The notes below the pieces were generated by a model, which saw nothing but the letters and a program-made list of their open reading frames with translations, searched no databases and was not told where the DNA came from. Shown one piece after another: positions 9,185-11,840 of a stretch of DNA of 12,338 nucleotides; position 1 is the first letter of the stretch, and the number at the start of each line of letters is the position of its first letter. The stretch spans positions 1 through 12,338 of the forward strand of contig OUQQ01000600.1 in NCBI GenBank assembly GCA_900404475.1, given 5' to 3'. The translations under genes and the position numbers were made by a program. This DNA is from Spongospora subterranea (lineage: Eukaryota; Endomyxa; Phytomyxea; Plasmodiophorida; Plasmodiophoridae).

Positions 9185-9709
9185 TCAATTGTTGTGGGGA
9201 AAAGTCCAGGATTCTTCATAATCTTCATACACAAATCTCACATGTAGTGCGTCCGGTTCTGGTCGTGTCCAGAATATGGTCAGACTATCTTTTGTTAGAT
9301 GGTAGAAGAGCAGCGCCATATCGCGGGAGATCTGTTCGATGTTCAAACGTGAATCGCCCCAGTGCTGCCACATGAACGTTTTGATCAAATCCTTGACCTG
9401 CGAAGATTCAAGAAGGCCATCATCCAGGCCCTGATCGACCATTGTGTCAACTTGATTGCGCAAATTCTCCCCTTCTCCATAAATATAATTACCGAACCTG
9501 CATTGGGCTGGCTTTCTGATGCTGGTCTTAATCTCATTACATTGGGCCAAAAAACCTTCAAAGTGATCGTTCATCCAAATTTGTTGCACTGCGGTGGGAG
9601 CGTTATCATGACCGATATCATCAGTGTCTTGAGCCAGGCCATCGTGAACAGCAGAGTAAGCAATAGGCAATAATGAAAGAAGAAGAAGAAATCCACCCAT
9701 GAGCGACAT
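9185..9709 (-). CDS. Small secreted protein, effector-like, copy A
   Basis: A 174-residue protein of unknown function, predicted to be secreted. I chose the ATG at 9709 because it begins a clear signal peptide: MSLMGG followed by FLLLLSLLPIAYS, with probable cleavage after Ser19 (Ala-x-Ser). The frame is open upstream to another ATG at 9874, but that 55-residue extension would bury the signal. The mature part is about 155 residues: an acidic start (AVHDGLAQDTDD), two cysteines (57 and 70) that could pair, a middle predicted as helical, and a Trp/aromatic-rich C-terminus (MWQHWGD, LTIFWTRPEPDALHVRFVYE). There is no RxLR or dEER motif, no membrane span and no known domain. A diverged copy lies 2.13 kb to the right. 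No intron is needed. Secretion, small size, duplication and fast replacement change suggest a host-interaction protein; this is inference. Confidence 0.7.
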   Translation of the reverse strand: MSLMGGFLLLLSLLPIAYSAVHDGLAQDTDDIGHDNAPTAVQQIWMNDHFEGFLAQCNEIKTSIRKPAQCRFGNYIYGEGENLRNQVDTMVDQGLDDGLLESSQVKDLIKTFMWQHWGDSRLNIEQISRDMALLFYHLTKDSLTIFWTRPEPDALHVRFVYEDYEESWTFPHNN

Positions 9710-9878
9710 TTGATACCGATTGCTATTGATATTATCTTTATGAACGCGTTTTGACCGGACCCGCTGGCAAAATCCGCGATATGACGCCACAGCCCACAGC
9801 CCATCGCGCACACCGCATTGACTGATCTGTGACTGTATCAAGTGCGAAGACCACTGAGGAACAGACAACACCATGTTC

Positions 9879-9886
9879 TATATATA
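9879..9886 (-). promoter_or_regulatory. TATATATA element upstream of copy A
   Basis: A TATATATA tract lies about 170 bp upstream of the start codon at 9709 and is repeated exactly in the other copy (12010-12017). It could be a TATA-like core promoter element, but its palindromic sequence gives no direction and the distance is only moderately suitable. Confidence 0.2.
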
Positions 9887-10092
9887 GGTTCACTGCGACA
9901 TTGATGAGTAAAATCAAAATAAACAGAGTGCCGATGCCCTCAACATTGCTATCCCCGAGTTGGCGTTTTCGAAGAGAATAAAAACATGTCCGCTGAATCA
10001 AATGATTGACCCTACAGTTAGCCATGCAAACTTCGAAACTAACCTCGGTATATCTAGTTCACCTGTGTTGATTGGCAATTCAAGATGTGATA

Positions 10093-10329
10093 ATGGACGG
10101 TCTCCGATGCCCCTTCTCAAGCTTGAATCCTGTCAGCCTTGTTGGTTCTCGCCTTGTGGAGGGAACCTTTATTGCCGAACACGAAGTTCTCCAACATTGC
10201 GATGTCATCCACAGCTCTCTCCAAACGCCCGTTCGAGGAGCTATTCTGCCCGGCGAGCACATGGCCCTGGCCTCATTTGTGGGATGTGAGGTGACCTCGC
10301 TCTCATCGATAAGTCGTTTCGGGAATTAG
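10093..10329 (+). other. Unidentified open frame inside the duplicated segment
   Basis: ATG at 10093 opens 78 codons to TAG at 10327-10329. The translation looks protein-like: LVEGTFIAEHEVLQHCDVIH and RGAILPGEHMALASFVGCEV, with alternating hydrophobic strands. I recognise no family. The first part is repeated at 12224-12338, with one base change (G to C at 10144 versus 12275) that changes an amino acid. Upstream the frame is open without ATG from 10072. It lies divergently from the secreted protein gene and might share its intergenic region, or it may be a retroelement fragment. Confidence 0.3.
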
Positions 10330-10439
10330 AATGGCAACAGGCTCGCACCATTGTGTGGCCCAAGATCCTTGACGAATGAGACGGATCATACCCGTCTGCT
10401 GTCCTGAGTTTTCAGTTCTAATACAGATCTTGTTGACCC

Positions 10440-10872
10440 CCCGATCAAATCGTGTGTGAGTGCTGGACCCCGAGTTTGTCCTGCTAAGGCGCGTCGTGTC
10501 GCGAAAGAATGAGTGCCAGGCGTCGGGTATCTTTTGCTACATATTCGCGATCACGAAAAACATAAAATGTTGCCCACCAACGAAAACTGCTCTAACTTTG
10601 ACAGAGGTAAATTCAGACGTTTCAAACGTTCCAATAATTCCGGACTGGGAGGCGCTGTTTTTGGTCTTAAAAGCAGACTATTGACAAAGATGGTAGGAGA
10701 CAAGATCGGCCACGTAACCCGATCTTGATTGATTTGAGTTGATAATCTGGACGACGAGATAGTGCATCAGGTTTGGCTGATAATTTACCCGCCCGATGTC
10801 TGATTTGAAATGTGAATTCTGAAAGAAGCATGGACCATCTTACTTGTCGACGATTTAGAACTTTCGACGCAT
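10440..10872 (-). mobile_element. Second Ty3/Gypsy relic: RNase H end, linker and start of integrase zinc region
   Basis: On the minus strand from 10870, VLNRRQVRWSMLLSEFTF and AGKLSAKPDALSRRPDY (ending about 10742) form the end of a Gypsy RNase H of the chromovirus-like 'ADALSRRPDY' kind. After a one-base frame change the linker reads PPSPELLERLKRLNLPLSKL and FSLVGNILCFS. After another shift it reads DREYVAKDTRRLALILSRHD, and then, after a further frame change, LAGQTRGPALTHDLI, where integrase zinc regions have HxxPLAGHxG. The relic is therefore broken by at least three shifts. It differs clearly from the other Gypsy relic, so two lineages are present. Its left limit, near 10440, is approximate. 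Confidence 0.75.
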
Positions 10873-11131
10873 GAGTCCATATATTCCTTCTGCGCTGATG
10901 ACATAGCTTCTTCATTTGGCCATGTAAAGTCTTCGGCAAGACTGTATGCTGCGAATGGGACAGATGAAATCTTTTGCTGGAATGGATCACTGCAGACACG
11001 CCATCGGCTGGAGAGACGCCCCAACGCGCCAATATGTCTGCCCATACGTTCTCGTCGCCAGATAAATGTTCGATGTGGAAGTCGAACGCGCGTAGCTGTA
11101 ACTGCCACCGCTCAAGGCGATCGCCAGCCGG
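10873..11131 (-). mobile_element. Duplicated fragment of the first Gypsy relic
   Basis: This is the copy of 8743-9000: RNase H end and linker on the minus strand, with MARWG in place of MTRWG. It is truncated at 10873, where the other Gypsy relic begins, so a hybrid open frame (minus, 11032-10667) joins the linker of one element to the RNase H end of the other. Five substitutions separate the two copies here. Confidence 0.85.
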
Positions 11132-11315
11132 GGGAAATGAGTAAGAAATGAAGAAATATAGTAATGTAAACGAAGCAGCAAGCGGGGGATGGCGATAGTA
11201 AAATAGGGCTGATAGAAAAATGAATATATCGGTACCAAAAAATCAGTCGAATCCCAAACACAACATTAATTTATGTATTAACATGGGTGTGGATTAGAAG
11301 GCGTATAGACGATGC

Positions 11316-11840
11316 TCAATTGTTGTGGGGAAAAGTCCAGGATTCTTCATAATCTTCATACACAAATCTCACATGTAGTGCGTCCGGTTCTGGTCGTGTC
11401 CAGAATATGGTCAGACTATCTTTTGTTAGATGGTAGAAGAGCAGCGCCATATTGCTGGAGATCTGTTCGATGTCCAAACGTGAATCGCCCCAGTGCTGCC
11501 ACATGAACTTTTTGATCAAATCCTTGACCTGCGAAGATTCAAGAAGGCCATCATCCAGGCCCTGATTGACCATTGTGACAACTTGATTGCGCAAATTCAT
11601 CCCTTCTCGATCAATATAATTACCGAAACTGCATTGGGCTGGCTTTCTGATGCTGGTCTTAATCTCATCACATTGGGCCAAAAAACCTTTAAAGTGATCG
11701 TTCATCCAATCTTGTTCCACTGCGGTGGGAGCGTTATCATGACCGATATCATCAGTGTCTTGAGCCAGGCCATCGTGAACAGCAGAGTAAGCAATAGGCA
11801 ATAATGAAAGAAGCAGAAGAGATCCACCCATGAGCGACAT
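11316..11840 (-). CDS. Small secreted protein, effector-like, copy B
   Basis: Paralogue of the protein at 9185-9709, the same length (174 residues), with the same start, signal peptide and stop. It differs at 15 residues: F7S, Q42E, I44D, E51K, N58D, R71S, Y77D, G78R, E81M, D88V, D92N, T111K, N123D, R129S and D130N. Residues 131-174 are identical, as are both cysteines and all tryptophans. Of 18 base differences only one is silent (Leu9). The frame is intact despite the excess of changes, which argues that both copies are or recently were functional. The upstream 498 bp are almost identical to those of copy A, so regulation is probably shared. Function unknown. Confidence 0.7.
   Translation of the reverse strand: MSLMGGSLLLLSLLPIAYSAVHDGLAQDTDDIGHDNAPTAVEQDWMNDHFKGFLAQCDEIKTSIRKPAQCSFGNYIDREGMNLRNQVVTMVNQGLDDGLLESSQVKDLIKKFMWQHWGDSRLDIEQISSNMALLFYHLTKDSLTIFWTRPEPDALHVRFVYEDYEESWTFPHNN

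What the first reader, a model, noticed from the sequence alone, without database searches (positions are those of the whole stretch)
9185..11840. Duplicated secreted protein under apparent diversifying selection
Seen: the two 174-residue genes differ at 18 bases (3.4%), while about 940 bp of flanking duplicate DNA differs at 8 bases (about 0.9%; only 1 in 498 bp upstream). By codon-by-codon hand count 17 of the 18 coding changes alter amino acids, giving 15 substitutions, many changing charge (I44D, E51K, Y77D, G78R, T111K). Fourteen fall in the mature protein between residues 42 and 130; the last 44 residues are unchanged. Inference: a dN/dS well above 1, as in host-interaction effectors, in a family without an RxLR motif that I do not recognise.
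Basis: partly seen in the sequence, partly recalled or inferred. Interest (0 to 1): 0.85.

Follow-up and report, generated by a model that had tools for sequence, protein, structure and literature searches.

The report
Fast-changing secreted protein, tandem duplicated
Two neighbouring copies of a small, apparently secreted protein in what looks like the potato powdery scab parasite have traded charged residues in their mature part while the DNA around them stayed nearly the same, which is how parasite proteins that meet a host often evolve.

Summary
Genes A (9185-9709, -) and B (11316-11840, -) differ at 18 of 525 bases; 17 are nonsynonymous (15 replacements), one silent; flanks differ at 8 of 940. 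dN/dS is about 5, but the gene alone is borderline (LRT p 0.036). The excess over flank plus silent sites is firmer (p 7e-5; 0.019 against the downstream flank alone). New: all 14 mature replacements between A and B change charge (about 1e-6 by mutation alone; post hoc).

Three searches of 5.8 billion proteins returned three relatives, all Spongospora subterranea. One shares 90-95% of the mature part and carries variants of both copies. Two share 15-17 of 19 signal-peptide residues but 24-28% of the mature part. So: a family, seen only in this species, with a conserved secretion signal and a fast-changing mature protein, here in a tandem duplication of about 2.1 kb amid gypsy-like debris. The contig ends inside copy 2, so copy number is a lower bound. 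No Pfam match; CAP/SCP membership tested and not met; structure models unusable. Best reading: candidate effectors under diversifying selection. Secretion and host role are inferred.

The parts
9185..9709 (-). Gene A, 174-residue protein, copy 1
   Evidence: Open frame; start codon chosen because P0002 and P0003 begin at the same MSL and P0001 three residues before it; 141 of 155 mature residues identical to B, 140 of 155 to P0001
11316..11840 (-). Gene B, 174-residue protein, copy 2
   Evidence: Open frame; 148 of 155 mature residues identical to P0001
9653..9709 (-). Signal-peptide-like start of gene A (codons 1-19)
   Evidence: Hydrophobic stretch read by eye; boundary assigned by hand, SignalP not available; 15-17 of 19 residues shared in the six comparisons of A, B, P0001 with P0002, P0003
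11784..11840 (-). Signal-peptide-like start of gene B (codons 1-19)
   Evidence: As for A
9320..9586 (-). Variable segment of gene A, codons 42-130: 16 base changes, 14 replacements, no silent change
11451..11717 (-). Variable segment of gene B, codons 42-130
8743..10872 (.). Tandem unit 1, 2130 bases under the tandem-duplication model; its right end is inferred from the start of unit 2
   Evidence: 8743-10207 matches 10873-12338 at 98%
10873..12338 (.). Tandem unit 2, cut off by the contig end
8198..8998 (-). Ty3/gypsy-like retroelement remnant (RNase H end and following region, with stops) beside the 3' flank of gene A
   Evidence: 82% identical to a stretch of contig C580, partly matched on C640; motifs read by eye against recalled gypsy motifs; no Pfam hit for the pieces scanned
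10667..10872 (-). Fragment of a second gypsy-like RNase H next to the unit 1/unit 2 junction
   Evidence: Read by eye; no Pfam hit
9870..9926 (-). Upstream stretch with a TATA-like site; 86% identical over 58 columns to the first bases of contig C344; repeated at 12001-12057
   Evidence: function not tested

Best explanation
A lineage-specific family of small secreted proteins of a plasmodiophorid, very probably Spongospora subterranea (inferred from the match). The proteins enter the secretory route by a conserved signal peptide, and their mature part is under diversifying selection. The local unit duplicated in tandem amid retroelement debris; afterwards the copies kept their upstream flank, signal peptide and C-terminal end but differ by charge-changing residues at 14 mature positions. 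The likeliest cause is a changing partner on the host side, so the proteins are candidate effectors. Shown: two copies in the assembly, excess of replacements, charge bias between A and B, conserved signal versus diverged mature part, relatives found only in this species. Inferred: secretion, expression in galls, surface exposure, host partner.
For: 17 of 18 coding differences nonsynonymous; NG86 dN 0.043, dS 0.009; ML omega 5.6, LRT p 0.036. Nonsynonymous sites exceed flank plus silent sites, p 7e-5; silent and flank rates do not differ (p 1.0). 14 of 14 mature replacements between A and B change charge; mutation alone gives 0.355-0.385 per nonsynonymous change, so 5e-7 to 1.6e-6 for 14, 4e-6 to 1.1e-5 for the 12 one-step codons, 5e-4 (A) and 7e-4 (B) when conditioned on the codons hit. 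P0001 carries B's residue at 10 of 15 sites, A's at 3, a third residue at 2. Signal peptide 15-17 of 19 vs mature 24-28% in six (not independent) comparisons, each p below 3e-5. A root-gall transcriptome of this species exists and is probably the source of P0001 (PMC4471660, passages; link inferred).
Against: Codon-only tests are borderline (p 0.02-0.12). Two copies only; no nucleotide sequence for P0001-P0003. Against the downstream flank alone p is 0.019. The charge test was chosen after seeing the data, and the three residues private to P0001 where A and B agree (G52A, E166D, H172Y) do not change charge (H counted neutral). No reads, no expression data for A or B, no SignalP; both structure models are poor (mean pLDDT 45 and 40).
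Confidence: 0.6

Rival explanations
1. Relaxed constraint after duplication: the copies drift neutrally, 17 of 18 nonsynonymous is luck, and the upstream DNA was homogenised or constrained.
For: Codon-only p values 0.02-0.12; upstream flank more conserved than downstream (1 of 498 vs 7 of 442, p 0.03), so the flank is not one uniform yardstick; of 13 sites with a two-way split, 10 are unique to A and 3 to B (p 0.09); P0001's private residues are charge-neutral.
Against: Drift should not push the replacement rate above the silent plus downstream-flank rate (p 0.008) nor give 14 of 14 charge changes. Both frames stay open with identical C-terminal 44 residues.
Confidence: 0.2
2. Imported segment: gene conversion from a more diverged unseen copy brought codons 42-130 into A or B. 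Not exclusive with the best explanation.
For: 14 of 15 replacements lie in codons 42-130; the contig ends inside the array, so more copies may exist; P0001 shares residues with both copies.
Against: An old imported segment should also bring silent differences; there is none in codons 42-130, so the donor would itself have diverged with replacements in excess. No third copy was found in the held genome (only best candidates are scored).
Confidence: 0.12
3. Assembly or sequencing artefact: two haplotypes or erroneous reads joined head to tail.
For: Short contig that ends inside the repeat; no reads available; the unit 1/unit 2 junction lies between two retroelement-like fragments. A's own residue at 10 sites has no outside confirmation.
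Against: Frames are intact in both copies and the single indel is outside the genes. P0001, a separate database sequence, has B's residue at 10 sites and A's at 3.
Confidence: 0.1
4. Secreted protein diversifying for a reason other than the plant host, such as self-recognition or competition with other microbes. The same sequence signature is expected.
For: Nothing here ties the family to a plant target (no call bears on it).
Against: The species is a biotroph of plant cells (recalled; passages), and the source of a relative is probably potato root galls (inferred).
Confidence: 0.15
5. Divergent CAP/SCP (PR-1-like) protein, as the database label of P0002 suggests.
For: P0002 is labelled SCP domain-containing; its HYTALLF resembles a CAP signature (recalled motif).
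Against: No Pfam hit for P0002 and P0003 at E up to 10 or for A, B, P0001 at E up to 1; the CAP model finds nine other places in the genome but not these genes; profile comparison with four of the genome's CAP proteins gave probability 0.2% (thin profiles, low power).
Confidence: 0.05

Closest known systems
P0001 = A0A0H5QX85, Spongospora subterranea (uncharacterised)
   Same: 148 and 140 of 155 mature residues identical to B and A
   Different: Three extra N-terminal residues; residues found in neither copy at 44, 51, 52, 166, 172
P0002 = A0A0H5RJ72 and P0003 = A0A0H5R3H4, Spongospora subterranea
   Same: 15-17 of 19 signal-peptide residues; shared W45, C57, K106, M113, W114, F146, W147 in B numbering
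   Different: 24-28% mature identity; P0002 lacks most of the C-terminal end; neither has its own gene in the held genome
Flax rust AvrL567 and Hyaloperonospora ATR13 (search listing and start of abstracts seen; detail recalled)
   Same: Small secreted proteins with replacement polymorphism tied to recognition by the host
   Different: Sequence relation not tested here; host receptors known there, none here
Ankyrin-repeat secretome cluster of plasmodiophorids (PMC12503489; section 7 and passages read)
   Same: Predicted secreted proteins, a multi-member group in S. subterranea (39 members in that paper)
   Different: No Pfam domain, so no ankyrin match, in A, B, P0001

Membership tests
Diversifying candidate effector (operational class) | Signal peptide | tested here: inconclusive
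   Read by eye and conserved in five family sequences; SignalP not available
Diversifying candidate effector (operational class) | Replacement rate above silent/neutral rate | tested here: met
   Omega 4.8-5.6, LRT p 0.036, other codon-only counts 0.02-0.12; versus flank plus silent p 7e-5, downstream flank only 0.019. Borderline on codons alone
Diversifying candidate effector (operational class) | Lineage-restricted, no known domain | tested here: met
   Three relatives, all S. subterranea, in word-based searches of 5.8 billion proteins, which can miss distant ones; no Pfam family
Diversifying candidate effector (operational class) | Expressed during infection and acts on the host | not testable with these tools
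   Only an inferred link of P0001 to a root-gall transcriptome
RxLR effectors | RxLR motif after the signal peptide | tested here: not met
   No RxLR in A, B, P0001, P0002, P0003
CAP/SCP (PF00188) | Match to the CAP profile | tested here: not met
CAP/SCP (PF00188) | CAP fold | tested here: inconclusive
   Models of B (pLDDT 45) and of P0003 (pLDDT 40); PDB search of the first: 0 of 816 matches at E 0.001 or better, best E 0.12 to a designed protein; not interpretable

The most novel reading that the evidence does not exclude
A species-private family that works like a cassette system: upstream region and signal peptide kept, mature part hyperdiversified, partly by charge switching at constant net charge, copies multiplied in a retroelement-bounded tandem array that assemblies truncate. 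If so it would be a worked case of diversifying selection on an effector family in Rhizaria; the listings (papers not opened) showed me no such case.
Probability: 0.3. Interest if true: 0.65.

Novelty: new member of a known kind. Interest (0 to 1): 0.47.

Why it matters
Plasmodiophorids are obligate parasites that are hard to grow and transform, and few of their effectors are understood. A family picked out by selection rather than by motif gives a short list of proteins and residue positions to follow across isolates, and warns that such genes may sit in tandem arrays that draft assemblies cut off.

Tried and rejected
CAP/SCP identity for the family, prompted by the label of P0002 and a motif resemblance recalled from memory: spoken against by Pfam, by the own-genome CAP search and by profile comparison. 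More copies in the held genome by protein, DNA and a 17-base start pattern with up to two mismatches (8 places, control pattern 2): beside A and B the pattern hit six places, none resembling the family in the translations or in a profile search of the 48 loci then held. Contig C344 shares 58 bases of upstream DNA at its very start, but its first 6000 bases gave only a chance-level protein match (best E 0.11). AlphaFold for B on three sequences and for P0003 on five gave unusable models; the PDB comparison of the first is not interpreted. In that model 44, 51, 58 and 81, 88, 92 would fall on shared helix faces, but at such confidence this is not evidence. Sequence search of solved structures with the three-sequence profile: one hit at E 0.36, chance level. 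NCBIfam: one sub-cut-off hit of P0003. No paper in the library names the three accessions. Search for conserved-signal, hypervariable effectors gave three papers on animal antimicrobial peptides, not used. Supplements of PMC12503489 could not be read, so whether the family is one of its clusters is unknown.

Full report
What the window is. The window is the whole of contig C656 (12338 bases) of an unnamed assembly of 20.6 Mb in 679 contigs. S. subterranea is a plasmodiophorid of Rhizaria.

Check of the observation. Genes A (9185-9709) and B (11316-11840), both on the minus strand, differ at 18 of 525 bases in 16 codons: 15 replacements and one silent change at codon 9. Flanks differ at 7 of 442 bases downstream, 1 of 498 upstream, and by one indel downstream. 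The 174-residue start is preferred over the 229-residue open frame because P0002 and P0003 start at the same methionine and P0001 three residues before it.

Is it selection? Nei-Gojobori: dN 0.043, dS 0.009, ratio 4.8. A pairwise codon model gives omega 5.6, and omega 1 is rejected at p 0.036. The chance of 17 or more nonsynonymous in 18 is 0.02 to 0.12 over transition/transversion weights 4 to 0.5, and Fisher on sites gives 0.07; the same script also printed a cruder count (14 or more of 15) at 0.05 to 0.19, which does not match the data exactly. So the gene alone is suggestive only. With the flank as yardstick, nonsynonymous sites exceed flank plus silent sites with p 7e-5; silent sites and flank do not differ (p 1.0). 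The upstream flank is more conserved than the downstream one (p 0.03), so the fairest yardstick may be the downstream flank alone: p 0.019, or 0.008 with silent sites. Absence of replacements in the last 44 residues has p 0.01 under a uniform spread, but P0001 differs at two positions there.

A second signal. Each of the 14 replacements in the mature protein changes charge; F7S in the signal peptide does not. A random nonsynonymous change does so with probability 0.355 to 0.385, giving 5e-7 to 1.6e-6 for 14 of 14; for the 12 codons with one base change 4e-6 to 1.1e-5; conditioned on the very codons hit, 5e-4 (A) and 7e-4 (B). Net charge of the mature part stays at -14 and -13. I chose this test after seeing the replacements, so it should be discounted. 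Against it: the three residues private to P0001 where A and B agree (52, 166, 172) do not change charge.

Relatives. Three searches of 5.8 billion proteins returned three proteins in all, all of S. subterranea (at E up to 0.1; at E up to 10). The search needs shared five-residue words, so more distant relatives can be missed. P0001 has B's residue at 10 of the 15 variable sites, A's at 3, and a third residue at 44 and 51. It thus supports the reality of variants from both copies; A's residues at ten sites have no outside confirmation. P0002 and P0003 share 15-17 of 19 signal-peptide residues with A, B and P0001 but 24-28% of the mature part (six comparisons, not independent, each p below 3e-5); between themselves 17 of 19 and 36%. 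The 19-residue boundary is mine; SignalP was not available. Used as queries in the held genome, P0002 and P0003 find only A and B. Whether that is gene presence/absence, missing or withheld sequence is open.

Domains and fold. No Pfam family for A, B, P0001 (E up to 1), P0002 or P0003 (E up to 10). NCBIfam gave one hit, P0003 to PRTRC_F at E 0.014 and far under its cut-off, taken as chance. The label SCP domain-containing of P0002 is not borne out: the CAP model finds nine places in the genome, none in this contig, and a profile comparison with four of the genome's CAP proteins gave probability 0.2%, though with thin profiles. AlphaFold models of B and of P0003 had mean pLDDT 45 and 40, so no residue was mapped on a surface. 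None of the five sequences has RxLR, LxLFLAK or CHxC.

Setting. 8743-10207 equals 10873-12338 at 98%. This fits a tandem duplication of a 2130-base unit whose second copy runs off the contig, so copy number is a lower bound. The left part of the unit is gypsy-like: 8198-8998 is 82% identical to a stretch of contig C580 across the 8743 boundary, so unit 1 seems to keep the older context and the 10873 boundary to be the newer junction. A second gypsy-like RNase H fragment lies just before it (read by eye; no Pfam hit). DNA searches found no further copy. Without reads I cannot exclude a false join, though the intact frames and P0001 speak against simple error.

Mechanism. Best supported: a secreted candidate effector family under diversifying selection, copies multiplied in tandem. 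Expression in galls is likely but inferred: the S. subterranea transcriptome HACM01 was made from potato root galls (PMC4471660, passages read), and the accession series of P0001 suggests, from memory, that it comes from it. Host contact is inference.

Literature. I saw no report of selection on secreted proteins of S. subterranea in these listings: Spongospora subterranea + positive selection (5 papers), Spongospora subterranea + secretome + signal peptide (5), Plasmodiophora brassicae + effector + diversifying selection (21 found, 15 listed), plasmodiophorid + tandem + secreted + positive selection (1), and the three accessions (0). Apart from PMC4471660 and PMC12503489 I opened none of them, and the library holds open-licence papers only. 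PMC12503489 (section 7 and passages read) clusters the S. subterranea secretome by predicted fold; its supplements could not be opened, so the family may be listed there.

Verdict. A real and rather clean instance of a known kind of evolution, in a poorly studied group and a family without a described domain. It rests on two copies and needs more alleles.

Noticed in passing
window 3907-5640 (+), right end by eye: Frames with a PA domain (E 2e-5) and a vacuolar-sorting-receptor thioredoxin-like domain (E 4e-20), probably one gene split by short introns: a vacuolar sorting receptor relative.
   Followed up: partly
window 7628-7819: 30-base minisatellite, a little over six nearly identical copies, open in frames on both strands.
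   Followed up: no
window 9870-9926 and 12001-12057; contig C344 1-58 (L025): Upstream stretch of the genes with a TATA-like site is 86% identical to the very first bases of another contig, without a recognisable family gene in its first 6000 bases.
   Followed up: partly
window 10374-10475: About 100 bases similar (76-93%) to 11 places on 10 other contigs: a short dispersed repeat inside the tandem unit.
   Followed up: no
window 6920-6965 and 7148-7191: Inverted repeat of about 45 bases, 87% identical.
   Followed up: no
G000 contigs C429, C396, C583, C162, C193, C620, C178, C315: Nine CAP-domain matches, two of them on one contig (C429) facing opposite ways, some with low-complexity Ser/Pro or Thr/Lys stretches in or near the frame.
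   Followed up: partly
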